From Roseiflexus sp. RS-1 (GTDB lineage: Bacteria; Chloroflexota; Chloroflexia; Chloroflexales; Roseiflexaceae), in NCBI RefSeq assembly GCF_000016665.1, contig NC_009523.1, positions 124,001 through 188,000 on the forward strand: a stretch of 64,000 nt of DNA, given 5' to 3'. This document shows, one piece after another, positions 5,991 through 61,620 of the stretch. The notes beneath the pieces were generated by a model, which saw nothing but the letters and a program-made list of their open reading frames with translations, was not told the DNA's origin and searched no databases. Made by a program: the position numbers and the translations under genes. Every line of letters starts with the position of its first letter. The first letter of the stretch is position 1.

Positions 5991-6009
5991 ACGCAAAACC
6001 TCGTTATCG

Positions 6010-6591: not shown

Positions 6592-6604
6592 CGTCCTTCT
6601 CGAA

Positions 6605-6640
6605 TAAAAAACCCCTCATCCCCTGATGGGACGAAGGGTC
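6605..6640 (-). terminator. Intrinsic terminator of the T-box leader
   Basis: On the minus strand, CCCTTCGTCCC and GGGATGAGGGG form an 11-bp stem with a short ATCA-type loop, followed by TTTTTT. It lies just after the T-box bulge and is mutually exclusive with the antiterminator, as in other T-box leaders. Confidence 0.85.
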
Positions 6641-6870
6641 GCTTCGTGGTTCCACCCATGTTTGGAACAGCGTTGCGCTGGCCCATGTCAGCATGCCGCA
6701 ACGCTTTCCCTCGTGATCGCTGTATCGGGCGAACCCGCGCTTCCATACTTGTCGGAGACGTTCAAGAAGCGGCTCGGAGGTGGTTTTCGCTGCATCTATC
6801 GCCGGGTGCGCTCACAGTCATCGGCGCGCCCTCCCTGAAGGCGGTCTCACAGCTACTCGTCCTCGTCAAC
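6605..6870 (-). promoter_or_regulatory. T-box leader (tRNA-Thr-sensing) upstream of the thrS operon
   Basis: Read on the minus strand, the leader has GGACGAGTAG and CTGTGAG segments of stem I. It then has the near-invariant T-box bulge TGGGTGGAACCACG (positions 6658-6645), which pairs with the tRNA acceptor end. A terminator hairpin with a T run follows. The stretch AAAACCACCTCCGAG near 6786-6772 fits a specifier loop with ACC (Thr) at 6784-6782. Uncharged tRNA-Thr should stabilise the antiterminator and allow transcription into the membrane protein gene and thrS. T-box identity is seen directly; the exact specifier is inferred. Confidence 0.88.
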
Positions 6871-6890
6871 GCAAACGGATAAACTATCGA

Positions 6891-6918
6891 TGTACCATAC
6901 ACACGCCCGCATGGTACA
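6891..6918. other. 8-bp perfect inverted repeat, possible operator
   Basis: TGTACCAT (6891-6898) and ATGGTACA (6911-6918) are perfect inverted arms separated by 12 bases. They lie upstream of the T-box leader and about 50 bases downstream of the end of the symporter gene. The spacing suits a dimeric regulator site; there is no T run to suggest a terminator. Confidence 0.4.
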
Positions 6919-6967
6919 CGACCGGGATGCGCATGTCAAGAGCGCCATTCTGTAGCGTCTCCACGTT

Positions 6968-16925: not shown

Positions 16926-16963
16926 TCAACTGGCTTGAGGATTAACTAGCAGGAGGTTCTCAG

Positions 16964-19900
16964 GTGTTACGTCCATCTCCTGTCGCAGTCTGGTGCGAGC
17001 GTGTGATCGAGGGTGGATGGTTGCTCGCGCTGCTCCTGATACCAACATACTTCAATCTGCTGTCAGCCCGTCACTTCGAGCCGGATAAAGCCACGACGCT
17101 GCGCTCGATTGTGATGATCATGCTGGCAGCGGCGCTGATCCATGCACTCGAAAAAATCTCTGCCTCACGCCCTCCTGCCGACGGGGACGCAAACGGCGCC
17201 TCCTGGTGGCGTCGTGTCGCCGCTGTGCCGCTCGCTGTTCCAACCCTGATCTATGCTGCGGTCTTCGTGCTGGCGACAGTGGTGTCGGTCGCGCCAGCGG
17301 TCAGTTTCTGGGGGTCCTACCAGCGCTTGCAAGGCACATTCACGAACCTCTCCTATATCATGCTCGGCGTCCTGATTGCGCTCTACCTGCGTCGTCGCGC
17401 GCAACTTGATCGCCTGGTCGTCGTGATGATCCTGTCCAGCCTGATCGCCGCTGGCTACGGTCTCGTGCAGCATCTTCAGCTCGATCCGCTCCCCTGGCGC
17501 GGCGATGTGGTGTCCCGCGTCGCTTCCACGATGGGAAATTCGATCTTTGTGGCAGCGTACATGATCATGGTGCTGCCCTACGCGCTCTATCGCGGCATTA
17601 TTGCCGTGCATCATGCGCGCAGCAGCCAGGTCTCCCCTTCGCAGCCGTCGGTCGATCTCGGATGGGGAGCGGCGTATGCGCTCCTGGCGCTGGCCGCGCT
17701 GGCGCTGGTTTTCGCCGCCATGATGTTCAGCGCAGTGGTGCGCGCCGCCGATCTGCGCTACTGGTGGGTCTACCCCGGTGCGCTGGTGGTTGCGGGCGGG
17801 TTGTTTCTGCTGATCGCACTGGCGCCGCACCGCGCTGAGCGCCTGACATTCGGGACGCTGATACCAGGCATCCTGCTGCTCGGATACGTCATCCTTCTCG
17901 GCATTTCGTATACGCTGGGGCAGGGACCGAACCAGCGGGTGGTTCCGCTGGAGGGGCGGCCGGGGGTTGAGTGGCCACTCTGGTTGGGGATTGCGACCGC
18001 GCTCATGACAGCCGGTTATGCGCTGGTGATTCTGCTTCCGCGGCGCCCCGACACTCCATCGCGCCTCAGTTACGCACTCGAAGCGGTCGGTGCATTCGTG
18101 ATCACAGCCCTGCTGCTGATCGCCACCTTTTTTACCCAGAGTCGCGGACCCTGGATCGGCGGCTTTGCAGCCCTGTTTGTGTTCTTTACCCTGCTGATTG
18201 TGCTCGCGTTGCACCGGGCGCGTCGGGATAACCCGGCGCGTGTGCGACTCTGGCGCGGGTTGCTGATCGGTGAAGTGACGCTGGCGATTGCGCTGGGCGG
18301 CTTCCTGGCAGCCTTCAACCTTTCTGATGCGCCGGTCTTTCAGCAGTTGCGCGATGTTCCGTACATCGGTCGCATGGGGCGTCTGCTCGAAGTGGAGAGC
18401 GGCACAGGACGGGTGCGCTGGTTGATCTGGTTCGGCGATGATAAAGCCGGCGGCGCCGCCGGTCTCATCCGCTCCGACCCATTGCGCATGATCGTCGGAT
18501 GGGGTCCCGAAACCATGTTTGTGGCGTACAACCCGTTCTACCCCCCATCGCTCACCAGCCTCGAAGCACGATCAGCATCGCCGGATCGATCCCACCAGGC
18601 GTATCTCGATGAGATCATCAACAAAGGGTTGCTCGGGCTGATCAGTTACCTCTTTCTCCTGTTCAGTTTCTTCGCGCTGGCGTGGCGTCTGATGACGCAC
18701 CTGGACGATTGGGGGTTGCAGGTGCTGATCATCGCTGCGGTTGCCGCCGTGACGGCGCACGCGGTTGAGGGATTGACCGGCATCCCGATTGTATCGACGT
18801 TGATGCTCCAATGGGTGTCTTTTGCGGTTGTCGTGTCTGCTGGCGGAATCGCCGGCATGTACCGCCTGCCCGGTATGCCGCCTGTACAGACCATGCCGGA
18901 GAAGGCATCAGCTTTGCCTGGAGCGCCAACTCCCGATAACGCGACCCGTTCAAGCAGAACGCCGAAAGACAGAGCGCCGGAGAAAGCGACAACATCTGCC
19001 CGTCAGCGCAGCGGGCGACGCGCCGAGGCGGTCAGGCGCGGATCGTCGCCTGCTCGACCGGCTGCGTCACGCACCCGCCAGGAAGGGCGTGCAGCGGCGA
19101 TGGCCGTGTACGCCGTGATTCTCATCATCGCCCTGCTGGGCGTCTGGGCGTTCAATGTGGACAGCGTGCTCGCGGATATGCGGCTGCAACAGGCGCAGGG
19201 GTATATCGACAATCCGGGCGGCAGGCTGGAACAACAGATCATCGGCGCCAGTTATCTGCTCGACGCGATCCGCATGGAGCCGGATCAGGACTTCTACTAC
19301 CTGACCCTTGGTCGGTCGCTGATGACCATGGTCACGCTGCGCGTCAATGAGGCGCGCCAGAACGGTGCATCGCTCGGTCAGATCGACCCGAATGCCAGCG
19401 TTGCAACGCTGCTGCAACTCGATGACACGGCGGCGCTGCAGTCGTTTGTGCTGCAACGCACGCCGATGGAACTGCTGAGTTATGCCCGCGCCGTTCTGCT
19501 GCGCGCGCAGCAACTGGCGCCGCTCAACAAGGATCACGCTGCCAACCTGGCGCGCATGTACAATTTCTGGTACCAGAACCTGAGCGGTGGTCAGGATCGC
19601 GAAGCGCTGACGCAGGCGATAGAATGGTATCAACGAGCGCACGCAATTGCGCCACAGGATGTCGCCATTCTGAACGAGTACGCTGCCGCCGTCGCCCGAT
19701 CCGGCGACTACGATCAGGCGCTGGCGTTGCTCGAAAAGTCGCGCTGGCTCGACCCGCTCTACAACGATACGCCTCTGCGGATGGGCGACATCCTGCGCAC
19801 GCAGGGGAAATTCGCCGACGCTGTCGATCACTACCTGATGGTGCTGGAGCGTGACCCGCGCGCGCTCGATGGGCAGATCACCGCCATCGCCGCAGCGCTC

Positions 19901-20251
19901 TCCTCTGATCCTGATCAGATGAAACGCCTGCGCGACGGCTACCTGGCGGCGCGATCTTCCCGCCCCGATGACCCGCAACTGTCGTCGATCATCGGATTGC
20001 TGTCGGTGCGCGCTGGCGACCTCGAAACCGCTGCAACCGCGTTTGCCGAAGCGGTACGCTTGCAACCGGACAACCTGGAAGCGCGCCAGAACTACACGAT
20101 CGTGCTCAGTGATCTGCTGCGCTACGATCAGGCGGCGCAACAGGCGCAGGAACTGTTGACGCGTGCGGCGCAACGCCAGGAGACGACCGACCAGCAGCGC
20201 GCTGCGATCGAAGCCTTGCTCGGTTATCTCCGACAACGCGCGGGCGGTTGA
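16964..20251 (+). CDS. O-antigen polymerase/ligase-like membrane protein with C-terminal TPR domain
   Basis: A 1095-residue protein. Residues about 15-640 hold roughly 14 membrane segments. The Wzy_C-like signature FFTQSRGPWIGGFAALF is followed by a large extracytoplasmic loop containing GWGPETM, SHQAYLDEIINKGLLGL and a further membrane bundle. A basic Ser/Arg/Pro linker (about 650-710) and one more helix lead to TPR units (EWYQRAHAIAPQD, ALALLEKSRWLDP, AFAEAVRLQPDN). The class polymerises or ligates cell-surface polysaccharide. The GTG start has AGGAGG seven bases upstream. No glycosyltransferases lie beside it, so its substrate is unknown. Confidence 0.82.
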   Translation: MLRPSPVAVWCERVIEGGWLLALLLIPTYFNLLSARHFEPDKATTLRSIVMIMLAAALIHALEKISASRPPADGDANGASWWRRVAAVPLAVPTLIYAAVFVLATVVSVAPAVSFWGSYQRLQGTFTNLSYIMLGVLIALYLRRRAQLDRLVVVMILSSLIAAGYGLVQHLQLDPLPWRGDVVSRVASTMGNSIFVAAYMIMVLPYALYRGIIAVHHARSSQVSPSQPSVDLGWGAAYALLALAALALVFAAMMFSAVVRAADLRYWWVYPGALVVAGGLFLLIALAPHRAERLTFGTLIPGILLLGYVILLGISYTLGQGPNQRVVPLEGRPGVEWPLWLGIATALMTAGYALVILLPRRPDTPSRLSYALEAVGAFVITALLLIATFFTQSRGPWIGGFAALFVFFTLLIVLALHRARRDNPARVRLWRGLLIGEVTLAIALGGFLAAFNLSDAPVFQQLRDVPYIGRMGRLLEVESGTGRVRWLIWFGDDKAGGAAGLIRSDPLRMIVGWGPETMFVAYNPFYPPSLTSLEARSASPDRSHQAYLDEIINKGLLGLISYLFLLFSFFALAWRLMTHLDDWGLQVLIIAAVAAVTAHAVEGLTGIPIVSTLMLQWVSFAVVVSAGGIAGMYRLPGMPPVQTMPEKASALPGAPTPDNATRSSRTPKDRAPEKATTSARQRSGRRAEAVRRGSSPARPAASRTRQEGRAAAMAVYAVILIIALLGVWAFNVDSVLADMRLQQAQGYIDNPGGRLEQQIIGASYLLDAIRMEPDQDFYYLTLGRSLMTMVTLRVNEARQNGASLGQIDPNASVATLLQLDDTAALQSFVLQRTPMELLSYARAVLLRAQQLAPLNKDHAANLARMYNFWYQNLSGGQDREALTQAIEWYQRAHAIAPQDVAILNEYAAAVARSGDYDQALALLEKSRWLDPLYNDTPLRMGDILRTQGKFADAVDHYLMVLERDPRALDGQITAIAAALSSDPDQMKRLRDGYLAARSSRPDDPQLSSIIGLLSVRAGDLETAATAFAEAVRLQPDNLEARQNYTIVLSDLLRYDQAAQQAQELLTRAAQRQETTDQQRAAIEALLGYLRQRAGG

Positions 20252-22110: not shown

Positions 22111-23445
22111 ATGGGGTACGAGTGGCTGGCTATCGCCATGTTCGTCGGGTTCTTCTTTCTCCTGATTAGCGGGTACCCGGTGGCTTTCTCATTTGCGGGA
22201 ACGGCGATTGTCTTCGGGTTGATCGGATTGTCGCTCGATGCGTTCAAACTCGACCTGCTCCGCCTGCTGCCGAACCGCTGGTTTGGGACGATGTCCGACT
22301 TTACGTTGCTGGCGATCCCTTTTTTCATCTATCTCGGTTCGGTGCTCGAAAAATCAGGGCTGGCTGAAGAGCTGCTCGAAACCGTTGGCATTCTGCTCGG
22401 TCCGCTACGCGGCGGCATCGCTCTCGCCGTTGTTGCAGTGGGGACGCTCCTGGCAGCCACCACCGGCGTTGTTGCTGCGACGATCATTGCGATGGGGTTG
22501 ATCTCGCTACCGATCATGGTGCGCCTGGGGTACGACAAAGGCCTGGCGACCGGCGCGATCACATCATCGGGAACGCTGGCGCAGATGATTCCGCCGAGTC
22601 TGGTGCTGGTGGTGCTCAGCGATCAGATCGGCGTTTCGGTCGGCGATCTCTTCGCCGGCGCATTGATTCCGGGGTTGATGCTGGCCGGTTCGTATGCGCT
22701 CTACTGTCTGGTCATCGCCTATCTCAAACCAGACCTCGCGCCTCCTCTGCCACTGGAAATGCGCCAGATCCGTGGATGGGCGCTGTTCGCCAAATCGATG
22801 AAGGCGCTGGTACCGCCAATTGCGTTGATCTTTGCCGTGCTCGGAAGTATTTTCTTCGGTCTGGCGACGCCGACTGAAGCTGGATCGGTTGGCGCGGTCG
22901 GTGCGATCCTGCTCGCCTGGGCGAATAAGCGCCTGAGCTGGAAGTTGCTGGCAGACTCGGCGCTCAGCACGGCGCGCACCAGTACGCTGGTGATTATGAT
23001 CCTGTTCTGCTCCACGTTCTTCTCCCTGGTGTTCGATGGTCTGGGCGGCACAAAGTTTGTCACCGAGATTCTGACCGGTCTTCCGGGCGGGTTGCTGGCG
23101 TTCATTATTGTCAGTAACATCGTTGTCTTCCTGCTCGGCATTTTCCTGGAATTCGTCGAGATCTGCTTTATTGTCATGCCGCTCTTTGTTCCCGCCGCAA
23201 GTGCGCTCGGCGTCGATATGGTCTGGTTCGGCATCATGATGGCGGTCAATCTCCAGACCGCGTTCATCTCGCCACCGGTCGGCTTCTCGCTCTTCTACCT
23301 TCAGAGTGTGGCGCCAAAGGAAGTGGAAACTGCCGATATTCACAAAGGGGCAATACCGTTCATGGTGTTGCAACTCGTTGTGCTGATCCTGGTCATTCTG
23401 TTCCCCGGCACCGTTACCTGGCTGGTCGAGCGGGTCGCGGGGTAG
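22111..23445 (+). CDS. TRAP transporter large permease (DctM-like)
   Basis: A 444-residue membrane protein of about 12 helices, nine bases after the small permease. DctM hallmarks are present: [47 protein letters not shown]-like ([19 protein letters not shown]), and near the C-terminus [18 protein letters not shown]. It is the translocation subunit. A matching solute-binding protein is not encoded nearby. Confidence 0.93.
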
Positions 23446-23512
23446 CGCCGGTGTGGAATATGACAAATGCGCCTGCCGCTCCTTCGCTGCGGGGAAGGCA
23501 GGAAATAGTGGA

Positions 23513-24424
23513 ATGATGAACACGAATCTCCTTGAGGACGATGTTGTCGGCAAAATCTACCTTGCCGACAACATCGACGTGCTGCGCACCCTTCCGTCGG
23601 AATCGGTAGACCTGATCTACATCGATCCCCCCTTCAACACCGGAAAAGTCCAGGAGCGCACCCAGCTCAAGACCGTGCGCTCTGAAAGCGGCGACCGTGT
23701 CGGCTTCCAGGGACATCGCTACGAGAGTATTGTTGTAGGGAAGAAGCGCTTTGCCGATCTCTTCGACGACTACCTGGCATTCCTGGAACCGCGTCTTGTC
23801 GAGGCGCACCGTATTCTGGCGCCGCATGGGTGCCTCTACGTTCACCTGGACTACCGCGAGGTGCATTACTGCAAGGTGCTGCTGGATGCCATCTTCGACC
23901 GCGCCTGCTTTTTGAACGAGATTATCTGGGCTTATGACTACGGCGGGCGTCCGAGGGACCGATGGCCTCCCAAGCACGACACCATCCTGCTCTACGCGAA
24001 GGTTCCCGGTCAGCATGTGTTCAATCTGGACGCAATCGAGCGCATCCCGTACATGGCGCCGGGACTGGTCGGACCTGAGAAGGCGGCGCGCGGGAAACTC
24101 CCAACCGATACATGGTGGCACACGATTGTTCCGACGAACGGTTCTGAGAAGACCGGGTATCCGACCCAGAAGCCGCTGGGGATTCTCCGCCGGATCATCC
24201 AGGCATCGTCTCACCCAGGGGCAGTCGTGCTCGACTTCTTCGCCGGTAGCGGGACGACGGGGATAGCGGCGCTGGAGTTGGGTCGGCGTTTCATTCTGGT
24301 GGACAACAGCCAGGAAGCCCTCCAGGTGATGGCCAGGCGATTCGATGGTATCAGGGGTATTACGTGGGTCGGTTTCGATCCGATGCCGTACCAGAAGGGC
24401 GAAAAGCAATATAGGCTGTTCTAA
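23513..24424 (+). CDS. Site-specific DNA methyltransferase, beta class (probable N6-adenine)
   Basis: A 303-residue S-adenosylmethionine-dependent methylase. Motif IV DPPFNTG lies near residue 40 and motif I FFAGSGTTG near 240, with a target-recognition region between. This order defines the beta class. DPPF usually means N6-adenine, less often N4-cytosine methylation. The motif YPTQKPLGILRRII precedes motif I, as in type II and type III Mod proteins. It is followed 29 bases later by a nuclease-like gene, and the pair looks like a type II restriction-modification system. The start ATG at 23513 (or 23516) follows AGGAAA. Confidence 0.9.
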   Translation: MMNTNLLEDDVVGKIYLADNIDVLRTLPSESVDLIYIDPPFNTGKVQERTQLKTVRSESGDRVGFQGHRYESIVVGKKRFADLFDDYLAFLEPRLVEAHRILAPHGCLYVHLDYREVHYCKVLLDAIFDRACFLNEIIWAYDYGGRPRDRWPPKHDTILLYAKVPGQHVFNLDAIERIPYMAPGLVGPEKAARGKLPTDTWWHTIVPTNGSEKTGYPTQKPLGILRRIIQASSHPGAVVLDFFAGSGTTGIAALELGRRFILVDNSQEALQVMARRFDGIRGITWVGFDPMPYQKGEKQYRLF

Positions 24425-24453
24425 ATGCCTACAAGACGGGATCAGGTGAACGG

Positions 24454-25008
24454 ATGCAACAGATCAAAGATCCTGATGTCCAGACACTCGTGTCAATCGC
24501 AGGCATGTTAAGGAAAGACTATGTTCGCGATGAGGATAATGACCCCTGGGCTGATAGCCCATTCGGATGGATTAGGACACGTCCCTCCCGGCAGCGCGGC
24601 AGGATCGGCGAGCAGCTTGTGGCTGGTTGGTGTGCGGCAAAAGGACTTGATGTCACGTCAAGCAGAAAACCAGAGGTAGACCGGGTCATTGCTGGAAAGC
24701 GTGTTGAGATCAAATTCTCAATGCTTTGGGAGAGTGGTATCTACAACTTCCAGCAAATTCGCGATCAGGATTACGAGTATGTCATCTGCCTCGGCATTTC
24801 GCCGTTCGACGCGCATTGCTGGGTGATCTCGAAAGATGTTCTTCGACAGTACGTCATTGGCCACACTCCTCAGCATACCGGAAGGCGCGGCACTGATACG
24901 TTCTGGCTTCAAGTCACAGTAGCGTCTCCTCCTGAGTGGTTAACAGCATACGGCGGAAGCCTCGCAGAAGCATACGAAATTATGCGGAAATGGCAGGCGA
25001 ATCTCTGA
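24454..25008 (+). CDS. Probable type II restriction endonuclease, PD-(D/E)xK-like
   Basis: A 184-residue protein directly downstream of the methylase. The stretch VDRVIAGKRVEIKFSMLW fits a PD-(D/E)xK core: an acidic residue in PEVDRVI, then E-x-K in VEIKFS. RGRIGEQLVAGWCAAKGL resembles the helix before the core in many restriction enzymes. It ends with WLTAYGGSLAEAYEIM. Codon use is less GC-rich than its neighbours, which fits horizontal acquisition. The recognition sequence cannot be told. Methylase neighbourhood is the main support. Confidence 0.7.
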   Translation: MQQIKDPDVQTLVSIAGMLRKDYVRDEDNDPWADSPFGWIRTRPSRQRGRIGEQLVAGWCAAKGLDVTSSRKPEVDRVIAGKRVEIKFSMLWESGIYNFQQIRDQDYEYVICLGISPFDAHCWVISKDVLRQYVIGHTPQHTGRRGTDTFWLQVTVASPPEWLTAYGGSLAEAYEIMRKWQANL

Positions 25009-25548
25009 TGCCAGATCGTCAGTCGCCGGTTGCGGAGCCTGTTACTGTAGCGAAGTGCAAAATTATCGTGCTACGTGGCGCGAGAAGCGCAGACGTCTGT
25101 TGATGGGTGGCCACGGAGTCTCAGATGCGTCGACCATTGCCTGAGTCTGCCGTGTCGCACAAGATGCCCGCTTGCGGCAACAGGTGCAGCCTTATCCAAC
25201 GGGCCCTGTAAGTGCTGCGCATCCACGCACTGCACCTTAGCGCCTCTGTGTGAGCAGGTCTGATGCATGCGAGCGGCAATTTCGGCAATCTTCCGATCTG
25301 GAGCGGGCGAGATGCCCGCGCACTCGGGACGTACATAAAAAATGCGGATTTAATGCTCAATCTCCATCAGCCCGACGGCTCGTTCGGGATAGCGGATGTA
25401 TAGCAGTTCTCATAGAGGTTGAACCTCCTCGGATGACCGCAGTCACCATCGCGCTCCCCGCGCAGCGACCGCCGTGCATGTCGGTCGGTAAGAGAAGACA
25501 TCCGCCGTCGTCCCCGTCGTCGGGCGTGACCCGCGGCAGTGCGGGCTA
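25009..25548. repeat. Gene-free accessory block with decayed interspersed repeats
   Basis: I see no gene in these 540 bases. They hold a right-end fragment of the MITE-like family (GGATTTAATGCTCAATCTCCAT, about 25346-25367) and a GAGCGGGCGAGATGCCCGCGC hairpin related to the arrays at 27.4 and 40.7 kb. A segment at about 25480-25548 recurs inverted at about 41280-41345. Confidence 0.6.
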
Positions 25549-25664
25549 ATGGTCTTTGAGTAAATAGTCCGGTATAGCCCGCGTAGGCGGGCTTCGCCTT
25601 GGCTAGCCGAGGGCTTCAGCCCCACGGCTAGCGCGGTAGAGCGGATTTAATGCTCAATCTCCAT
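25549..25664 (+). mobile_element. MITE-like element, copy 1 (116 bp)
   Basis: It starts ATGGTCTTTGAGTAAATA and ends AATGCTCAATCTCCAT, imperfect inverted repeats, with two internal hairpins (AGCCCGCGTAGGCGGGCT; AGCCGAGGGCTTCAGCCC). It interrupts GGGCTA/AAGCCC. The uninterrupted form, in reverse orientation, is at about 41273-41290, so this is a filled site next to an empty site in the same window. It has no coding capacity. Confidence 0.8.
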
Positions 25665-25920
25665 AAGCCCTCCCTGAGCGCCTGGAAGCCCCTGCGGGGC
25701 TGGCGTTTCGGTTATCCTTGCCATATGCCGGGAGGACTGGGGTTGATCCAGCCCGCAGGGCTTGCCCGACCTCAGCAAGGGCTTATGGTCTTTGAGGAAA
25801 TAATCCGCCGTAGCCCGCGCAGGCGGGCTTTGCATTCCATAGCCGAGGGCTTATGGACTTTGAATAAATATTCCGTTATACTAATATTCATCCGTGTCAA
25901 GCCTTGCTCAGGAGGTTGCG

Positions 25921-26196
25921 ATGCCGGCACGCCGGACCCTTCACTTGTGCATCGAGGAACGGGAGGCCCTCGAAGACCTGCGCGATCACGCTCCCAAGCC
26001 CTATTTGCGCGAACGGGCGGCGGCATTACTGCTCATCGCGTCCGGCGTACCGCCTGCCGTCGTGGCGCGCGAACGCTTGCTGCGTCCGCGCCATCCGGAA
26101 ACCGTCTCTCGCTGGCTGAATCGCTGGGAAGCCGAGGGCATCGATAGCCTCCCCATCCGGGACGGACGCGGGCGCAAGCCCGCTTTTTCCCCCTGA
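25921..26196 (+). CDS. IS630-like transposase, frame A (N-terminal DNA-binding part)
   Basis: A 91-residue product with an HTH region (YLRERAAALLLIASGVPPAVVA, then PETVSRWLNRWEAEGIDSLP) that binds the terminal repeats. An AGGAGG precedes the ATG. It ends at TGA in the context TTTTTCCCCCTGA (26184-26196), where a shift by +1 on CCC (CCC to CCT) would join frame B exactly at GAC. A full transposase of about 387 residues would result. Confidence 0.8.
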   Translation: MPARRTLHLCIEEREALEDLRDHAPKPYLRERAAALLLIASGVPPAVVARERLLRPRHPETVSRWLNRWEAEGIDSLPIRDGRGRKPAFSP

Positions 26197-27085
26197 CCAC
26201 CATGACCCCGAGACGGCGGCGACTGAGGTGGAGCATCTGGTCCGCCGTGACCCGCGGCAGTGTGGGCTGACCCAGACGCGCTGGACCCTGGACGCCATCC
26301 GCAGCCCGTTGGTGTGGGGACGCGACGCCGCGCTGCGCGGGATCGCCCGCATCCTGGATCGGTTGGGCATCACCTGGCAGCGCGCCCGCAGTCATGGGCA
26401 TAGCCCTGATCCTCACGATCAGGCCAAACTGCAGGAGATTGCGGACGTGGTGGAGGATGCCCGCGCGCACCCCAACCAGGTGGTGACCGTGTATCTGGAT
26501 GAAGTCACGGTCACCCGGCGCCCGACCCTGGCCAACGGGTATGGACGGGCAGGCGCCGATCAGGTGCGGGCGGAACGGAGTCGGGCGACCGATGGTGACC
26601 TGCGCATCGTGGGCAGTTTGGACGTCGTGACGGGCCAGGTGGTCACCCGGCGGGCGAAGACGATTGGCCTGGCGACGCTGGTGCGATTCTACCAGGATCT
26701 GCACGCTGCCTATCCTGAGGCTGAGCGCATCGATGTCATTCTGGATAATTGGCCGGTCCATTTTCATCCGGATGTCCTGGTGGCGCTCGAGCCGCAAACG
26801 ACCCGCTGGGCGTTTTCCCGTCCTGGCAATTGGCCGGCCACGCCCAGTGGACGGGCCGTGCGCCGGGCTGGAGATGTCCGCCTGCCCATCCAACTGATGC
26901 CGTTGCCGACGTATGCGTCGTGGTGCAATCCGATCGAGAAGCTGTGGCGGTGGATGCGTCAGGAGGTCACCCGCGTGCATCGCTGGGCGACGGATCTCGA
27001 TCAGTTGCGCAGCCATCTGGATGCCTTCTTCGCGTCGTTTGCAACCGGCTCGTCAAAGCTTTTACAGTATGTCGGTCTCGGATAG
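26195..27085 (+). CDS. IS630-like transposase, frame B (DDE catalytic part)
   Basis: The 296-residue continuation contains the DDE catalytic triad: Asp in VYLDEVTVT, Asp in VILDNWPVH, and Glu in WCNPIEKLWRWM. The first in-frame internal start is a GTG at 26228, but synthesis as a fusion with frame A by +1 frameshifting is more likely, since an active transposase needs both parts. The DDE core appears intact. Confidence 0.82.
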   Translation, partial: DHHDPETAATEVEHLVRRDPRQCGLTQTRWTLDAIRSPLVWGRDAALRGIARILDRLGITWQRARSHGHSPDPHDQAKLQEIADVVEDARAHPNQVVTVYLDEVTVTRRPTLANGYGRAGADQVRAERSRATDGDLRIVGSLDVVTGQVVTRRAKTIGLATLVRFYQDLHAAYPEAERIDVILDNWPVHFHPDVLVALEPQTTRWAFSRPGNWPATPSGRAVRRAGDVRLPIQLMPLPTYASWCNPIEKLWRWMRQEVTRVHRWATDLDQLRSHLDAFFASFATGSSKLLQYVGLG

Positions 27086-27156
27086 CGGATTATTTATTCA
27101 AAGACCATCAGCCCCACGGCTAGCGCGATAGAGCGGAATAAATGCTCAATCTCCAT

Positions 27157-27400
27157 CAGCCCGACGGCACGAGGCGTATACCGGATCAAATTCTCAATAT
27201 TAGCCCCACGGCAAGCTCTCCTGTCGGGTGTCGTGTATTGGCTATTCCTCTGCCCAGCAGCAAGCTCTCCTATCGGCTATCGGCTATCGGCTATTCCTCA
27301 GCCCCACGGCCACAACGTTCGGCATATTCAATAATGCTGCCCTTCGCCATAGAGCAGGTAAGCGACGGCGGCAATTCCGGCAATCTCCGGTCTGGAGCGG
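27157..27400. repeat. Repeat block, inverted copy of the block at 40.4-40.6 kb
   Basis: From 27157 to about 27310, CAGCCCGACGGCACGAGGCGT, the TGTCGGGTGTCGTGTATTGG segment and the CTATCGG heptamers are the reverse complement of about 40425-40625. Gene-free. The following bases up to 27400 are further repeat debris. Confidence 0.7.
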
Positions 27401-27585
27401 GCGGGGACGCCCGCGCACCCGGGGCATCCATAACGTGCTGACGGTTACCCCCCCACGGGCGTGGCGAGACGCCCGCGCACCCGGGGCGCGCATAGACTGC
27501 CTTCGCCAGATACGCCGGTTCGACGCGAGACGCCCGCACACCCAGAGCGCACAATGCCGCCCTTCGCTCTCGACCGACGTTTCGC
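27400..27585. repeat. Two GC hairpin repeats related to the 40.7-41.1 kb array
   Basis: GCGGGCGGGGACGCCCGCGC (about 27398) and GGCGAGACGCCCGCGCACCC (about 27463) are reverse-orientation copies of the array described at 40678-41105. No gene is seen. Confidence 0.5.
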
Positions 27586-27741
27586 TCAAACCGGCGAGAC
27601 TGGCGTATCTGGACGTTCGGATCGCCACATCCAGATCGAGATCGCCACCCCGACGACACAGAGCGTGACGCCCAGCGGCGCATCCCACGGACGGTAGCGC
27701 AGCGTCACCTCGGCGACCCCCGGCGGAATGGCGACGCTGAA
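27586..27741 (-). pseudogene. C-terminal remnant of a YfhO-like membrane protein
   Basis: The last 50 or so codons of a minus-strand frame read VAIPPGVAEVTLRYRPWDAP followed by a hydrophobic helix and a short basic tail. This resembles the conserved end of YfhO-type membrane proteins (PxGxxxVxxRYxPW, then a final helix). Nothing upstream on this strand continues it, so it is a truncated remnant left at the edge of the repeat block. Confidence 0.5.
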
Positions 27742-27754
27742 CCGGCAATGGTTG

Positions 27755-27760
27755 TATAAT
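27755..27760 (+). promoter_or_regulatory. Possible -10 element (TATAAT) before the small companion gene
   Basis: TATAAT, 62 bases before the start at 27822; no good -35 is seen at the usual distance. Confidence 0.35.
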
Positions 27761-27821
27761 TCGGAGGAGTGTATCATCTCAGTCTTCATATGAGGACTTG
27801 AAAGACTCTGGGGAGCGTGTC

Positions 27822-28295
27822 ATGCCGTATGCCAGTATCAAACTCATCTTCCGGGCAGCGCCGCATGCCGGCGCAAGCCCGGCGCTGGTCAGCGCAACTG
27901 CGCGCCAGGTGGTGGCGAGTCTTGTGCAACAGAACCAGCGGATCGAACCGGTGTACGACGGTTCGCGGGGCGGCGATCTGTATCAGTGGCTGGTGGAGAC
28001 CGCAAACGCCGCACAACCGCTGATTCCACTTGCAACCCTGGCGCTTACCGTCGCCCAGTTGTTGAAGGAGGTAAAGAATCTCAGCAAAAGCGACACGAGC
28101 ACCCCCAGAGACCAACCACCGATCGTCGTCGTTGTGACCTGCGGTGACGCCACATGCACACCGCCTCCCGACAGCGATCAGGCGCTGCTGGAACAGTTGC
28201 TGCGCGAAACGTTTCCCGACCAGATCGAGCCTGACCGACTGAGCGTTGAAGTTCAGGTCGGCTCGCCACCGCCGCCGCCATCCCCCTTCGATTGA
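27822..28295 (+). CDS. Small protein of unknown function upstream of the caspase-STAND gene
   Basis: A 157-residue protein: an N-terminal strand (ASIKLIFRAA), a helix (ALVSATARQVVASLVQQ), DGSRGGDLYQWLVE, a long hydrophobic helix (PLIPLATLALTVAQLLKEV), then a strand (PPIVVVVTC) and a last helix ending before a proline-rich tail. The alternation of strands with one apolar helix is reminiscent of the small effector-associated constant components that accompany caspase- or NTPase-based conflict systems, but I cannot show homology. GGAG lies six bases before the ATG. It shares orientation with the large gene 288 bases downstream. Confidence 0.6.
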   Translation: MPYASIKLIFRAAPHAGASPALVSATARQVVASLVQQNQRIEPVYDGSRGGDLYQWLVETANAAQPLIPLATLALTVAQLLKEVKNLSKSDTSTPRDQPPIVVVVTCGDATCTPPPDSDQALLEQLLRETFPDQIEPDRLSVEVQVGSPPPPPSPFD

Positions 28296-28316
28296 GGGAG
28301 CGGGCGTTCTTCTCTG

Positions 28317-28398
28317 ATGGTCTTTGAATACAAAATCCGCCGTAGCCCGCGCAGGCGGGCTTCGCCTTGCTTAGCCGAGGGCTTCAGCCCGACGGCAA
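28317..28398 (+). repeat. Left half of a MITE-like element
   Basis: ATGGTCTTTGAATACAAAAT at 28317, then the AGCCCGCGCAGGCGGGCT hairpin and GAGGGCTTCAGCCCGACGG; the right terminal repeat is missing. It lies between the small gene and the caspase-STAND gene. The remaining bases up to 28583 contain a TACAAT (28528-28533) that could be a -10 for the large gene. Confidence 0.65.
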
Positions 28399-28583
28399 CG
28401 GCGTTCCTTCTCCAATTTCGGGCATCAAGACGCCCCGTCTCCCCCTTCTCCTCTTGTGGGAGAAGGGGGACGGGGGGATGAGGGGGCAAACGCGCCTCGG
28501 ATCTTCCCCCACCTCAACCCTATCGTGTACAATAGTGAACAATATCGAGATCAGACATCACACCATTCCTTGCCGACCGCCCT

Positions 28584-31500
28584 ATGTCGAAACGCGCACT
28601 CATCATCGGCGTCAATCGCCCGCAGAACGATCCGACATTCGCTCCCCTGCGCAGCGCCGAACGCGATGCGAATGATCTGGCGAGCGCACTGCATGACTGC
28701 GGCTTCGCGGTGCAATCGCTGATCGGGCAACAGGCGACAACGGATGCCATCCGCAAGGCTGTTGCCAGATTGCGACGGCAGGCTGACAGCGAGAGTGATC
28801 TCTTCATAGCCTTTTCTGGTCACGGGGCCTGGATTCCTCCGGTGGCTGGACACCCCGATGGTACGACCTTCCTGGTCAGTGCCGATTACGAGAGCGAGAT
28901 CGCTACCGGCGACCCCAACTACTACCTCTCCCTCGACTGGTGGTACACCCAGTTGCTCGCCTGGGATAAGCCGCGTAGTGTGGTGCTGGCGCTCGATTGC
29001 TGCTTTGCCGGTAATGTCGCACAGGCTGCCGAGCGGCGATCTATCGGCGACGCGATTGAACAGCACTTTCGCGGCGTCACCGTTCCAACCGGACGCCTGC
29101 GCGCCTATCTGGCGGCAACTGTACCGGGCGAGAAAGCCTACGAAGATGACCGTGGCGGATTGTTGACGCAGGCAGTGGTGGCGTGTCTGCGCGATAAGGA
29201 CGGTCAGGGTGATGGGTTAGTCACGGTCCCGGCATTGATAGATGCCGTGAAAAAGCATGCTGCTCTGCACCCCGACCGGTCACATCCCTTCACCGAGTAC
29301 AAAGGTGATTACCACTGGGTGCTCGCCGATCACCGCGAAGCCCGACGAGCGGCACGGGAGGCGCAGCAGGCTGAGCAACGGCGCGCCGAGGCGCAACAGC
29401 GACTCAAACGCTGGCGGTCGCCGCGCAGCGCTGCCCGCCGCGACGAGTTGCTGCGCGGCTTTGTTGGGCGCGAAGCCGAATTGCGTGAACTTTCTAAAGA
29501 GATCGAGCGTCTGCGCGCCACCGGCGGCTACCTGCTGGTGACCGGCGTTGCCGGCCAGGGCAAGAGCAGCATCCTGGCGAAACTGATCGCCCACCGTGAA
29601 CCTGAACCAACCCCCGCCTACTTCATCCGCTTTACCCCCGGACCCTCAGAACAGGCTGCGCTGCTCGGTCACCTGGTCGCCGAGTTGCTGACCCTGGCCG
29701 AACGCGAAGCCGATGCGCTCACCTACCTGCCCGATGGCGACAGTGTCGTAGCGTTGTACAACAGCTTCGAGATTCTGCTGAACGATCTGGCAGCCCAACG
29801 ACCGTTGACACTGGTGATTGACGGGCTGGATCAGATCGAACCTGACCTGGCTGGACGGCGCGATCTGAGCTTCCTGCCCGAACGGCTGCCGCCCGGTGTG
29901 GTGCTGGTGATCGGCACCCGTCCCGACGACACGCTGAAGCCGCTCAAACTACGCACCCCGCACTGCGAATATTGCCTGCCGCCACTGAGCGAAGCCGACT
30001 TTGGCGAGCTGCTGCGTGATCGCGGCGTGACGCTCAGCGCGCATGAGCAATCGGAACTCTACCATGCGCTGCACGGTAATGCCTTCGACCTGGCATTTCT
30101 GGCGCAGGAGATACGCCAGACACCACACACTAAAATCGCCGCGTTGCTCCGGCGGGTCATCGCCAATCCACGCGACCTGTTCACGCCAACACTGGACCGG
30201 TTGCAGCGCGACTGGAACCTGTGGGAGAGGGTGTTGCGCCCCCTGCTGGGCACCTTGCTGGCTGCCCAGGAGCCGCTCAGCCGCGACGCTCTGCGCGAGA
30301 TTCTTAACGTCTCTCAGGATCGTATCCAGACCGCGATTGAGCGCCTGGGGGGGCTGCTTGGTGTGCGCGATGTACAGGGACAACCGAGGTACGGGTTGAT
30401 CCACCTGAAACTGATTGACTATTTGCGCACGGAGACGTTCGCCGCTGACGAACTGATCACCTGTCATGCCCAGATCGCAGCGTGGTGCGGTCGTGATCTG
30501 GCGCATCTCTGGCAACCAACAACCGATCTTGCCGAACAGGAACGGCGTGCCTACGGGCAAACCCACCTGGTCACGCATCTGGCAGCGGCGCAGAAGTATG
30601 ACGACGTCTGGCGTCTGTTAGACGCCGATGAGTACGGCGCAGCGAAGCGGCGTGCCGACCCTAGCCTGCGGGCGTACATTGCCGACCTTGATCGGGTGCG
30701 GCAGACAATAGCGGATGCGTCGGATCGCGACCGGCAGCAGATGGCGACATGGCTGGCGCGGGCCTGGCGCTATAGTCTGCTGCGGGTCAGCCTGACGGGT
30801 AAAGTTGACGCATGGCCGACGGAACTGTTCACAGCACTGGTTGCCATGGGGCGAGGCGCCGAAGCGCGTGACCGCGCCGAGTTGCTGAGCGATCCGAAAC
30901 AACGGGCAGAGGTGCTGACCGCAGTGGGGCGGGCGTTGCTGGAACGCGGCGCTGCCGGCGGGTTGGAGGCGTTCCGTCGTGCCCGCGCTGCTGCCGAGGC
31001 GATCTCTGACCCTTACAAGCGCGCCGAGGCCCTGCGCGCCCTGGCGCGGGCGCTGGCGGCGGCGGGGCAGTGGGAGGAGGCGCGGGCGGTCGTGGAGGCG
31101 ATAGCCGACCCCCTCTGGCGCGCCAGGGCGCTGGGGGATGTGGCAGGCGCGCTGGCGCGGGCGGGGCAGTGGGAGGAGGCGCGGGCGGTCGTGGAGGCGA
31201 TAGCCGACCCCGACGAGCGCGCCGAAGCGCTGGGGGATGTGGCAGGCGCGCTGGCGGCGGCGGGGCAGTGGGAGGAGGCGCGGGCGGTCGTGGAGGCGAT
31301 AGCCGACCCCTTCCGGCGCGCCAGGGCGCTGCGGAAGGTGGCAGGCGCGCTGGCGCAGGCGAGACGCTGGGACGACGCCCGCGCCGTCGCCGAGACGATT
31401 GCCGACCCCTTCTGGCGCGCCGAAGCGCTGCGGGAGGTGGCAGGCGCGCTGGCGGCGGCGGGGCAGTGGGAGGAGGCGCGGGCGGTCGCGGCGGCGATAG

Positions 31501-33779
31501 CCGACCCCTTCTGGCGCGCCGAAGCGCTGCGGGAGGTGGCAGGCGCGCTGGCGGCGGCGGGGCAGTGGGAGGAGGCGCGGGCGGTCGCGGCGGCGATAGC
31601 CGACCCCATCTGGCGCGCCAGGGCGCTGGGGGATGTGGCAGGCGCGCTGGCGGCGGCGGGGCAGTGGGAGGAGGCGCAGCGCACCTTTGCTGGAGCGCGG
31701 GCGGTCGCGGCGGCGATAGCCGACCCCGACAAGCGCGCCGAGGCCCTGCGCGCCCTGGCGCGGGCGCTGGCGGCGGCGGGGCAGTGGGAGGAGGCGCGGG
31801 CGGTCGCGGCGGCGATAGCCGACCCCAGAGAGCGCGCCGGGGTGCTGCGTGCGCTGGCAGGCGCGCTGGCGGCGGCGGGGCAGTGGGAGGAGGCGCGGGC
31901 GGTCGCGGAGGTGATAGCCGACCCCCTCCGGCGCGCCGAAGCGCTGGGGGATGTGGCAGGCGCGCTGGCGGCGGCGGGGCAGTGGGAGGAGGCGCGGGCG
32001 GTCGTGGAGGCGATAGCCGACCCCCTCTGGCGCGCCAGGGCGCTGGGGGATGTGGCAGGCGCGCTGGCGCGGGCGGGGCAGTGGGAGGAGGCGCGGGCGG
32101 TCGTGGAGGCGATAGCCGACCCCTACGAGCGCGCCTGGGCGCTGGTGGCTATGGCAGGCGCGCTGGCGGCGGCGGGGCAGTGGGAGGAGGCGCGGGCGGT
32201 CGCGGCGGCGATAGCCGACCCCAGGCAGCGCGCCGAAGCGCTGGGGGATGTGGCAGGCGCGCTGGCGGCGGCGGGGCAGTGGGAGGAGGCGCGGGCGGTC
32301 GTGGAGGCGATAGCCGACCCCTTCCGGCGCGCCAGGGCGCTGCGGAAGGTGGCAGGCGCGCTGGCGGCGGCGGGGCAGTGGGAGGAGGCGCGGGCGGTCG
32401 CGGCGGCGATAGCCGACCCCTACGAGCGCGCCGAAGCGCTGGGGGATGTGGCAGGCGCGCTGGCGCGGGCGAGACGCTGGGACGACGCCCGCGCCGTCGC
32501 CGAGACGATTGCCGACCCCTACAAGCGCGCCGAAGCGCTGGTGGCGCTGGCAGGCGCGCTGGCGGCGGCGGGGCAGTGGGAGGAGGCGCGGGCGGTCGCG
32601 GCGGCGATAGCCGACCCCCTCCAGCGCGCCGGGGTGCTGCGTGCGCTGGCAGGCGCGCTGGCGCGGGCGGGGCAGTGGACGGATGCCCAACAGACCTTCG
32701 CCGCCGCCCGGCAGAGCGCCGAGGCGATAGCCGACCCCTACAAGCGCGCCGAAGCGCTGGGGGATGTGGCAGGCGCGCTGGCGGCAGCGGGGCAGTGGGA
32801 GGAGGCGCGGGCGGTCGCGGCGGCGATAGCCGACCCCTTCTGGCGCGCCGAAGCGCTGGGGGATGTGGCAGGCGCGCTGGCGCGGGCGGGGCAGTGGGAG
32901 GAGGCGCGGGCGGTCGCGGCGGCGATAGCCGACCCCGACAAGCGCGCCTGGGCGCTGGTGGCGCTGGCAGGCGCGCTGGCGGCGGCGGGGCAGTGGGAGG
33001 AGGCGCGGGCGGTCGCGGCGGCGATAGCCGACCCCGACAAGCGCGCCTGGGCGCTGGTGGCTATGGCAGGCGCGCTGGCGGCGGCGGGGCAGTGGGAGGA
33101 GGCGCGGGCGGTCGCGGCGGCGATAGCCGACCCCAGGCAGCGCGCCGAAGCGCTGGGGGATGTGGCAGGCGCGCTGGCGCGGGCGGGGCAGTGGGAGGAG
33201 GCGCGGGCGGTCGCGGCGGCGATAGCCGACCCCAGCCAGCGCGCCGAAGCGCTGGGGGATGTGGCAGGCGCGCTGGCGCAGGCGGGTGATACCCAGGCGG
33301 CGCAGGCGACCTTTGCCGCCGCCCGCGCCGTCGCCGAGACGATTGCCGACCCCTACAAGCGCGCCGAAGCGCTGCGTGCGCTGGCAGGCGCGCTGGCGGC
33401 AGCGGGGCAGTGGGAGGAGGCGCGGGCGGTCGCGGCGGCGATAGCCGACCCCTACGAGCGCGCCAGGGCGCTGGTGGCTATGGCAGGCGCGCTGGCGCAC
33501 GCGGGGCAGTGGGCGTATGCCCGGCAGACCGCCGAGGCGATTGCCGACCTCCGCGAGCGCGCCGAGGCCCTGCGCGCCCTGGCGCAGGCGTTGATCCGCG
33601 CCGGTCAGATTGATGACGCCATGGCGCTGCTGGTCAGCGCATGGGCGCAGGCGCAGACTGTTGACGAGTTGACTAAACTTTTTACTATTGATGCCTCGTT
33701 ACTGCGTGCGTACCCGACGCTAGGCGGCGATCTGCCGGAGGCGTTCAATTGGGTAGAGCGAGTCGTGCGCGCCGGTTAG
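28584..33779 (+). CDS. Caspase-like protease fused to a STAND NTPase and about 25 TPR-like 33-residue repeats
   Basis: A 1731-residue protein. Residues 1-250 are a C14 caspase-like domain: RALIIGVN, catalytic His80 in AFSGHGAW and Cys140 in ALDCCFAGN. A charged helix (about 251-285) leads to FVGREAEL and a STAND-type NTPase: Walker A GVAGQGKS (321-328), Walker B LTLVIDGLDQ (408-417), VIGTRP (442-447), then a winged-helix-like region to about 650. Residues 823-1668 are 25 tandem repeats, mostly 33 residues (ALAAAGQWEEARAVAAAIAD, then PxxRAxALxxxAG), three of them 40 long. The STAND design suggests that ligand sensing by the repeats drives NTP-dependent oligomerisation and protease activation. 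Substrate and trigger are unknown. Confidence 0.9.
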   Translation: MSKRALIIGVNRPQNDPTFAPLRSAERDANDLASALHDCGFAVQSLIGQQATTDAIRKAVARLRRQADSESDLFIAFSGHGAWIPPVAGHPDGTTFLVSADYESEIATGDPNYYLSLDWWYTQLLAWDKPRSVVLALDCCFAGNVAQAAERRSIGDAIEQHFRGVTVPTGRLRAYLAATVPGEKAYEDDRGGLLTQAVVACLRDKDGQGDGLVTVPALIDAVKKHAALHPDRSHPFTEYKGDYHWVLADHREARRAAREAQQAEQRRAEAQQRLKRWRSPRSAARRDELLRGFVGREAELRELSKEIERLRATGGYLLVTGVAGQGKSSILAKLIAHREPEPTPAYFIRFTPGPSEQAALLGHLVAELLTLAEREADALTYLPDGDSVVALYNSFEILLNDLAAQRPLTLVIDGLDQIEPDLAGRRDLSFLPERLPPGVVLVIGTRPDDTLKPLKLRTPHCEYCLPPLSEADFGELLRDRGVTLSAHEQSELYHALHGNAFDLAFLAQEIRQTPHTKIAALLRRVIANPRDLFTPTLDRLQRDWNLWERVLRPLLGTLLAAQEPLSRDALREILNVSQDRIQTAIERLGGLLGVRDVQGQPRYGLIHLKLIDYLRTETFAADELITCHAQIAAWCGRDLAHLWQPTTDLAEQERRAYGQTHLVTHLAAAQKYDDVWRLLDADEYGAAKRRADPSLRAYIADLDRVRQTIADASDRDRQQMATWLARAWRYSLLRVSLTGKVDAWPTELFTALVAMGRGAEARDRAELLSDPKQRAEVLTAVGRALLERGAAGGLEAFRRARAAAEAISDPYKRAEALRALARALAAAGQWEEARAVVEAIADPLWRARALGDVAGALARAGQWEEARAVVEAIADPDERAEALGDVAGALAAAGQWEEARAVVEAIADPFRRARALRKVAGALAQARRWDDARAVAETIADPFWRAEALREVAGALAAAGQWEEARAVAAAIADPFWRAEALREVAGALAAAGQWEEARAVAAAIADPIWRARALGDVAGALAAAGQWEEAQRTFAGARAVAAAIADPDKRAEALRALARALAAAGQWEEARAVAAAIADPRERAGVLRALAGALAAAGQWEEARAVAEVIADPLRRAEALGDVAGALAAAGQWEEARAVVEAIADPLWRARALGDVAGALARAGQWEEARAVVEAIADPYERAWALVAMAGALAAAGQWEEARAVAAAIADPRQRAEALGDVAGALAAAGQWEEARAVVEAIADPFRRARALRKVAGALAAAGQWEEARAVAAAIADPYERAEALGDVAGALARARRWDDARAVAETIADPYKRAEALVALAGALAAAGQWEEARAVAAAIADPLQRAGVLRALAGALARAGQWTDAQQTFAAARQSAEAIADPYKRAEALGDVAGALAAAGQWEEARAVAAAIADPFWRAEALGDVAGALARAGQWEEARAVAAAIADPDKRAWALVALAGALAAAGQWEEARAVAAAIADPDKRAWALVAMAGALAAAGQWEEARAVAAAIADPRQRAEALGDVAGALARAGQWEEARAVAAAIADPSQRAEALGDVAGALAQAGDTQAAQATFAAARAVAETIADPYKRAEALRALAGALAAAGQWEEARAVAAAIADPYERARALVAMAGALAHAGQWAYARQTAEAIADLRERAEALRALAQALIRAGQIDDAMALLVSAWAQAQTVDELTKLFTIDASLLRAYPTLGGDLPEAFNWVERVVRAG
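31050..33587 (+). repeat. 25 tandem 99-bp (three 120-bp) in-frame repeats
   Basis: Units of 99 bases encode 33 residues; units 7, 17 and 23 carry a seven-residue insertion (AQRTFAG, AQQTFAA, AQATFAA). Most codons are identical between units, while positions 22-23, 26 and 29-31 vary. A partial 26th unit follows. Such high identity implies recent expansion by recombination, and copy number may vary between strains. Confidence 0.95.
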
Positions 33780-33810
33780 CGGCAGTAGAACGGCGCGGCA
33801 TCCGCCTGCC

Positions 33811-40394: not shown

Positions 40395-40430
40395 GGTGCA
40401 TTCATCCGGTATGCGCCTCTTGCCGCGGGG

Positions 40431-40577
40431 CAGAGGAATAGCCGATAGCCGATAGCCGATAGGAGAGCTTGCTGCTGGGCAGAGGAATAGCCGATAGCCG
40501 ATAGCCGATAGGAGAGCTTGCTGCTGGGCAGAGGAATAGCCGATACACGACACCCGACAGGAGAGCTTGCCGTGGGG
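40431..40577. repeat. Three tandem copies of a 49-bp repeat
   Basis: Copies begin CAGAGGAATAGCC at 40431, 40480 and 40529, and each contains AGCCGAT heptamers and GGAGAGCTTGCTG. The third is diverged. Reverse-orientation copies are at 27200-27310. Confidence 0.85.
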
Positions 40578-61500: not shown

Positions 61501-61503
61501 GCA

Positions 61504-61601
61504 ATAGCCGATAATCGATAGCCGATAGCCGATAATCGATAGCCGATAGCCGATAATCGATAGCCGATAATCGATAGCCGATAGCCGATAATCGATAGCC
61601 G
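61504..61601. repeat. 14-unit heptamer array of two variants
   Basis: Fourteen consecutive heptamers are either ATAGCCG (A) or ATAATCG (B), in the order A B A A B A A B A B A A B A. Single A-like units also occur at 61858, 62124 and in the 40.4 and 27.2 kb repeats. Confidence 0.95.
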
Positions 61602-61620
61602 ATAGGCGAGAGGCAAGAGG

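What the first reader, a model, noticed from the sequence alone, without database searches (positions are those of the whole stretch)
28584..33779. Caspase-STAND-repeat protein as a candidate cell-suicide or defence sensor
Seen: a caspase-like domain with His80 and Cys140, a complete P-loop NTPase of STAND type, and 25 near-identical repeats in one chain. Known: STAND NTPases sense ligands with C-terminal repeats and activate attached effectors, and several work in phage defence. Inference: this is a bacterial death-effector sensor, standing next to an R-M system and mobile DNA. I cannot tell whether this architecture has been described.
Basis: partly seen in the sequence, partly recalled or inferred. 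Interest (0 to 1): 0.85.

Follow-up and report, generated by a model that had tools for sequence, protein, structure and literature searches.

The report
Bacterial NLR-like caspase with hypervariable repeats
A hot-spring bacterium carries, in an inserted DNA segment, a large protein that joins a caspase-like protease, an ATP-driven switch and 26 almost identical repeats whose variation sits mainly on the predicted binding face, which makes it a likely self-destruct or defence sensor of a broadly known kind with an unusual way of changing what it recognises.

Summary
In detail: ORF 28584-33779 encodes 1731 aa with a caspase-fold domain (His80/Cys140 align with metacaspase-4 His86/Cys139), an Apaf-1/MalT-like STAND NTPase, and 26 TPR units of 33 or 40 aa.

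New here:
- The gene lies in a 10.4-kb insertion (about 23444-33805), absent from three sister genomes, with a type II restriction-modification pair and a transposase.
- Relatives in Chloroflexota keep the STAND and C-cap but swap the N-terminal effector (caspase, TIR, CHAT).
- A small unannotated upstream gene (27822-28295) accompanies the caspase versions. It resembles EACC1 in position and topology but fails the EACC1 model.
- The caspase-STAND half is 87% identical in DNA to one of Chloroflexus type, where valS is 71%, implying horizontal transfer.
- The repeats are homogenised within each gene (50 of 50 nearest neighbours) and vary mainly at concave TPR positions, above all 33/34. No DGR is nearby.

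Best reading: a bacterial NLR-like sensor whose ligand-triggered assembly activates a metacaspase-type protease. Caspase-STAND-repeat architectures are already described (Asplund-Samuelsson 2012; Kaur 2020, 2021). The concerted, surface-focused repeat evolution, like fungal HNWD genes, is the noteworthy part. Function is inferred; positive selection is suggested, not proven.

The parts
23444..33805 (.). Strain-variable insertion (island) between a TRAP-transporter DctM gene and valS; holds the R-M pair, a transposase, the small partner gene and the caspase-STAND-TPR gene
   Evidence: Roseiflexus genomes G335, G316 and G395 align up to window 23443 and resume at 33805-33810, with only 125-639 bp between in their own DNA
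23453..24424 (+). Type II DNA methyltransferase (N6_N4_Mtase)
   Evidence: Pfam E 9e-46; PADLOC MTase_II E 1.3e-141
24454..25008 (+). Predicted type II restriction endonuclease partner
   Evidence: PADLOC REase_II PDLC03515 E 3.1e-57
26228..27085 (+). DDE_3 transposase-like ORF
   Evidence: Pfam DDE_3 E 7e-19
27822..28295 (+). Small alpha+beta partner protein (157 aa) with a central hydrophobic helix (about residues 63-90); EACC1-like in position and topology; no Pfam family
   Evidence: Family found in 16 of 400 Chloroflexota genomes; adjacent to a caspase-STAND gene at 13 of 19 places; AF2 model pLDDT 78; no EACC1 match
28584..29333 (+). Caspase (C14, metacaspase/paracaspase-like) domain, residues 1-250; His80 codon 28821-28823, Cys140 codon 29001-29003
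29334..29414 (+). Helical linker, residues 251-277
   Evidence: AF2 secondary structure
29436..30533 (+). STAND/NACHT NTPase with winged-helix region, residues 285-650; Walker A GVAGQGKSS, Walker B LTLVIDGLDQ, GTRP sensor motif
30534..30995 (+). Helical arm between NTPase and array (residues 651-804)
   Evidence: Conserved in relatives with caspase, TIR or CHAT N-termini
30996..33632 (+). 26 TPR units (33 or 40 aa), hypervariable at TPR positions 33, 34, 2, 5, 6, 13
33633..33779 (+). Conserved C-terminal cap and stop
   Evidence: Similar C-terminal ends in G134, C. aggregans-size genome G230 and other relatives

Best explanation
This is a bacterial NLR-like receptor-protease with a small partner protein, carried on a horizontally acquired defence-type island. 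Shown: caspase fold with a conserved His/Cys dyad; STAND NTPase; a TPR array homogenised within the gene but variable on the concave face; an interchangeable N-terminal effector; a linked partner gene; and strain-variable, transferred DNA. Inferred: the resting protein is a closed, ADP-bound monomer; an intruder protein (or a tampered host protein) binds the concave face of the TPR superhelix; nucleotide exchange drives oligomerisation; clustered caspase domains become active and cut proteins, probably after Arg/Lys as metacaspases do, stopping growth or killing the cell. The small upstream protein probably docks the caspase at the membrane or gates it. Unequal recombination within the array reshuffles unit variants to change specificity.
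For: Caspase and STAND folds and dyad. Same STAND-arm chassis with caspase, TIR (E 2e-12, 6e-11, 4e-8) or CHAT (E 7.5e-23) at its N-terminus. Partner gene adjacent at 13 of 19 places. Insertion absent in three sister genomes and shared with an R-M pair. Gene 87% nt identical to the G134 copy against 71% for valS. Nearest neighbour of every repeat is in its own gene, 50 of 50, shuffled maximum 39. Entropy at the seven concave TPR positions of Magliery and Regan (PMC1261162) exceeds the other positions: p 0.0014, 0.0038, 0.027 and 0.0069 in four genes. No retroelement nearby: the only RT lies 3.6 Mb away. Array end differs between strains: 77% nt identity in the array against 97% just downstream.
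Against: No phage, toxicity or proteolysis data. Non-defence roles of STAND-TPR proteins exist (MalT). No PADLOC system is defined for this architecture, and the Avs2 match is trivial. Conservative event counts at positions 33/34 do not exceed the neutral expectation, so diversifying selection is not proven. Some 42-aa TPR arrays of a sister architecture also vary on the concave face while one does not, so the pattern is not exclusive.
Confidence: 0.66

Rival explanations
1. A STAND-caspase regulator of stress or development in a filamentous, mat-forming bacterium: the array senses a host protein or metabolite and the caspase performs limited proteolysis, not suicide and not anti-phage.
For: STAND-TPR proteins such as MalT respond to host metabolites (general knowledge); MalT is among the best structural matches; metacaspases have non-death roles in general knowledge.
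Against: Island location with R-M, patchy presence, transfer between families, effector swapping with TIR and CHAT, and fast turnover of the sensor face are unusual for a housekeeping regulator.
Confidence: 0.17
2. A kin or allorecognition device, as with fungal HET-D/E: the array senses a polymorphic host or neighbour protein and kills mismatched cells.
For: Same three features as the HNWD genes: NACHT switch, homogenised repeats, variation at interaction positions (PMC1805685). Alternative role also suggested for bacterial systems in PMC10907252.
Against: No route for cytoplasmic mixing between Roseiflexus cells is known to me; the anti-MGE reading explains the island context without it.
Confidence: 0.1
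3. The repeats are mere recombination noise in a GC-rich array; their variation has no specificity meaning.
For: Event-based counts at positions 33/34 fit neutrality.
Against: Variation concentrates at concave positions in four independently homogenised arrays, while framework codons stay fixed and the array stays at about 22 to 28 units.
Confidence: 0.07

Closest known systems
EACC1-caspase two-gene conflict systems (System 4, Kaur et al. 2020, PMC7159879)
   Same: Small 5' gene (alpha+beta, hydrophobic helix, alpha+beta) followed by a caspase protein with a variable C-terminus that may include STAND and repeats; best NCBIfam caspase model is NF047832 caspase_w_EACC1
   Different: Small protein fails the EACC1 profile and a profile comparison with two Streptomyces relatives; caspase scores 53.7 bits against a cut-off of 140; in the C. 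aurantiacus-type loci the small gene is downstream
Prokaryotic metacaspases with NACHT or NB-ARC and repeats (Asplund-Samuelsson et al. 2012, PMC3501461)
   Same: Caspase plus NACHT/NB-ARC, Chloroflexi among the hosts
   Different: That survey does not describe the partner gene, the effector-swapped family or the repeat evolution, as far as the passages read show
Fungal HNWD/HET-D/HET-E NLRs (Paoletti 2007 PMC1805685; Dyrka 2014 PMC4986451)
   Same: Effector-NACHT-repeat layout, concerted evolution, variable interaction positions, TPR versions also known
   Different: Fungal, HET effector, WD40 mostly; positive selection shown there, only suggested here; works-like, not a member
AVAST (Avs) anti-phage STAND proteins
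   Same: N-terminal effector, STAND ATPase, C-terminal helical-repeat sensor; Avs3 is the top Foldseek hit
   Different: No meaningful match to Avs family models; Avs arrays are not homogenised as here (general knowledge)
DGR-diversified conflict sensors (PMC10907252)
   Same: Sensor diversification in multicellular bacteria with caspase, CHAT and TIR effectors
   Different: No DGR here; diversification is by repeat turnover

Membership tests
Caspase/metacaspase superfamily (C14) | Caspase-haemoglobinase fold | tested here: met
   AF2 model 1-250: MALT1 Z 20.4, rmsd 2.5, 194 aligned; metacaspase-4 Z 20.2; Pfam C14 E 7.7e-15
Caspase/metacaspase superfamily (C14) | Catalytic His/Cys dyad with metacaspase-type DxC motif | tested here: met
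   H80 with His86, C140 with Cys139 of metacaspase-4; H80, D138, C140 invariant in 15 rows
Caspase/metacaspase superfamily (C14) | Proteolytic activity and Arg/Lys specificity | not testable with these tools
   Needs biochemistry
STAND NTPase | P-loop NTPase with Walker A/B plus winged-helix region as in Apaf-1/MalT | tested here: met
   Walker A GVAGQGKSS and Walker B VIDGLDQ conserved; Apaf-1 Z 23.4 over 409 residues
STAND NTPase | Ligand-triggered oligomerisation | not testable with these tools
   Needs protein
EACC1-caspase system | Small gene adjacent to a caspase gene | tested here: met
   13 of 19 places; upstream at nine of them, downstream at four
EACC1-caspase system | Small protein matches EACC1 (PF19953) | tested here: not met
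   No match for any of 8 members up to E 10; none of these loci found by the EACC1 model; hhalign not significant, though the EACC1-side profile had only 2 sequences
EACC1-caspase system | Transmembrane helix with small-residue patch | tested here: inconclusive
   Peak KD hydropathy 1.52 in the window protein, 1.9-2.3 in three C. aurantiacus-type members
EACC1-caspase system | Caspase of the EACC1-associated subtype (NF047832) | tested here: inconclusive
   Best NCBIfam caspase hit, E 1.8e-14, 53.7 bits, below the cut-off of 140
AVAST (Avs) | Match to Avs family models | tested here: not met
   PADLOC Avs2 E 5.8e-4, 15.7 bits; NCBIfam Avs2 11.7 bits against cut-off 1000
HNWD-like repeat-diversified NLR (works-like) | Concerted evolution of repeats | tested here: met
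   50 of 50 nearest neighbours within own gene, while the rest of the gene is 87% identical between the two
HNWD-like repeat-diversified NLR (works-like) | Positive diversifying selection at interface codons | tested here: inconclusive
   Pairwise pN/pS at 33/34 is 5.2 and 18.5 in two genes, 0.8 and 1.5 in two others; event counts do not exceed neutrality

The most novel reading that the evidence does not exclude
A bacterial counterpart of the fungal HNWD repertoire: an NLR-like death receptor whose specificity is renewed without a retroelement, by recombination among near-identical TPR units with hypervariable concave positions (33/34 above all), giving a readable repeat code for recognising invaders.
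Probability: 0.35. Interest if true: 0.8.

Novelty: new variant of a known kind. Interest (0 to 1): 0.6.

Why it matters
Caspase-STAND-repeat proteins have been catalogued, but how such bacterial receptors gain new specificities is largely open. This family offers a natural experiment: the same switch and cap with different effectors, and arrays that differ mainly at a few predicted contact positions. That makes the link from repeat sequence to trigger directly testable by array swaps, and ties bacterial receptors to the fungal and animal NLR logic.

Tried and rejected
DGR hypermutation: variable codons are often NNC-NNG, but the genome has a single RT gene 3.6 Mb away and the unit motif occurs nowhere else in the genome; rejected. 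Small protein as EACC1 proper: no profile support; kept only as analogous. Fold search with the small protein: nothing above Z 6.2 and no Foldseek match under E 0.28; uninformative. Phage origin: no match in 50,697 phage records. 'Positive selection' was first read from pairwise pN/pS and weakened by event counts.

Full report
WHAT IS THERE. The ORF at 28584-33779 is real: 1731 aa, with C14 caspase, NACHT-like and TPR matches. The genome is a single 5,801,598-bp contig, the size of Roseiflexus sp. RS-1 as I recall it; identity was not otherwise tested, and 'RS-1' below is only a label for the window's genome. AlphaFold2 of residues 1-830 with 27 relatives gave pLDDT 86.9. Residues 1-250 match paracaspase MALT1 and metacaspase-4 (Z about 20), and about 280-740 match Apaf-1 (Z 23.4) and MalT (Z 21.6). 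His80 aligns with metacaspase-4 His86, and Cys140 with the Cys139 that was mutated in one of the solved entries. H80, D138 and C140 are invariant in 15 relatives. The conserved DxC aspartate suggests a metacaspase-like basic P1 preference; that step rests on general knowledge of metacaspases.

PARTNER GENE. A 157-aa ORF (27822-28295) lies 288 bp upstream. It has no Pfam family. A profile of eight relatives finds it in 16 of 400 Chloroflexota genomes, 19 places. At 13 of these a caspase-STAND gene is the neighbour: upstream small gene at nine, downstream at four of C. aurantiacus type. G316 and G052:C5 lie at contig ends. G253:C17 has only the end of a TPR ORF before it, at the contig start. 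G052:C20 is an orphan beside a tRNA-synthetase gene. G061 (partial) and G328 (weak) have no detected caspase neighbour. The predicted fold is beta-alpha-beta-beta-alpha-beta-beta-alpha-beta with the second helix hydrophobic. This matches the described topology and 5' placement of EACC1, and NCBI's nearest caspase model is the EACC1-associated one. But the EACC1 profile does not match, and hhalign against two Streptomyces relatives, one of them a weak EACC1 hit, is not significant. I call it EACC1-like, not EACC1.

SAME CHASSIS, DIFFERENT EFFECTORS. A search of 400 Chloroflexota genomes with residues 1-774 found relatives in 30. Many match only from about residue 270-290. Their N-termini are TIR (L042 by eye; L047, L050, L062 by Pfam), CHAT protease (L057 by Pfam; L049 its close homologue), an unassigned domain of about 180 aa (L044-L046, L065), or almost nothing (L051, L053, L063). 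STAND, helical arm and C-cap are shared.

ISLAND AND TRANSFER. Three sister Roseiflexus genomes are collinear with the window up to 23443 and again from 33805-33810, with only 125-639 bp between. The window's extra 10.4 kb holds a type II methyltransferase and a predicted restriction enzyme, a DDE transposase-like ORF, the partner gene and the caspase gene. A fourth genome, G330, whose DNA just downstream is 97% identical, has the gene too, but its contig breaks inside the array. In Chloroflexaceae genome G134 the first 2.34 kb of the gene is 87.1% identical in DNA, while valS is 71%; DNA similarity stops at the gene ends. The caspase gene has therefore moved between families. The partner gene is only about 61% identical in protein between the two, so the two genes may have travelled apart. 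The H. aurantiacus plasmid pHAU01 carries a relative beside an integrase and a transposase.

THE ARRAY. There are 26 units: 33 aa, with three 40-aa spacings. Between-unit identity is 79.8% nt within the gene but 65.0% to the units of G134, although the rest of the gene is 87% identical. The nearest neighbour of each of 50 units lies in its own gene (shuffled maximum 39). Exact duplications of up to 162 bp at spacings such as 912 bp show block recombination. So the array undergoes concerted evolution. Between the window and G330 the array end is 77% identical against 89% in the C-cap and 97% just downstream.

Variation is not spread evenly. Aligned to TPR numbering, the most variable residues are 33 and 34 (for example YK, FW, LW, DK, RE; 13 pairs in 25 units), then 2, 5, 6 and 13. 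Magliery and Regan list 2, 5, 9, 12, 13, 33 and 34 as the most variable TPR positions, exposed on the concave face (PMC1261162). Mean entropy at those seven exceeds the rest in four genes (permutation p 0.0014, 0.0038, 0.027, 0.0069). Units within a gene are not independent, so these p values are guides. Pairwise pN/pS at 33/34 is 5.2 in the window gene and 18.5 in G230, but 0.8 and 1.5 in the other two. With minimum-spanning event counts the nonsynonymous excess over other positions is p 0.05, 0.16, 0.01 and 0.15, and none exceeds neutrality clearly. Positional hypervariability is firm; positive selection is only suggested. As a contrast, a 42-aa TPR array of a caspase-NB-ARC-type relative (L055) is equally homogenised without the concave excess, while two others (L056, L066) show some. 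No DGR is involved.

HOW IT PROBABLY WORKS. By analogy with Apaf-1, Avs and fungal NLRs: ADP-locked monomer; ligand on the concave TPR face; ATP exchange and oligomerisation; proximity-activated protease; damage that stops the cell. Shown are the parts and their evolution; every dynamic step is inferred. Anti-invader suicide is favoured over developmental regulation because of island context, transfer, effector exchange and sensor turnover.

WHAT IS KNOWN. Caspase-NACHT and NB-ARC proteins from Chloroflexi are in the 2012 survey (PMC3501461). Kaur and colleagues describe caspase-STAND-repeat combinations and EACC1-caspase pairs, mainly in actinobacteria (PMC7159879; PMC8195603). Concerted, interface-focused repeat evolution is known from fungal NLRs (PMC1805685; PMC4986451). 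My searches found no report of it in bacterial STAND proteins, but the library holds only open papers, and relevant subscription papers may exist. I file it as a new variant of a known kind.

Noticed in passing
window 15126-20251: An SMC/RecF-like ATPase ORF (Pfam SMC_N; PADLOC mad3 E 4e-29) followed by a 1095-aa TPR protein; possibly another defence-type pair.
   Followed up: no
window 27211-27304, 40419-40570, 61497-62604: Short tandem repeats of ATAGCCG/CTATCGG and longer palindrome-rich units scattered in intergenic DNA, one block just upstream of the partner gene.
   Followed up: no
L057 5276-10027 (+) and 11783-14770 (-): A CHAT-STAND-repeat gene lies under 2 kb from a convergent caspase-NB-ARC-TPR gene: two different receptor-proteases side by side.
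   Followed up: partly
L044, L045, L046, L065 (N-terminal ~180 aa): Unassigned N-terminal domain in the effector position of the same STAND chassis, with no Pfam family where tested (L044).
   Followed up: partly
L055 and L056 (C. aurantiacus-size genome G118, and G198): Caspase proteins with 42-aa TPR units and C-terminal hydrophobic segments have the small partner gene downstream instead of upstream.
   Followed up: partly
L067 (G364) caspase ORF 4801-7566 (-): Caspase relative with Ala where the catalytic Cys is expected (LDCAYSG): possibly an inactive caspase.
   Followed up: no
L150 4529-4954: A 141-aa ORF of unknown family sits about 10 bp upstream of the caspase-STAND gene on H. aurantiacus plasmid pHAU01; perhaps a very diverged partner gene.
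   Followed up: partly
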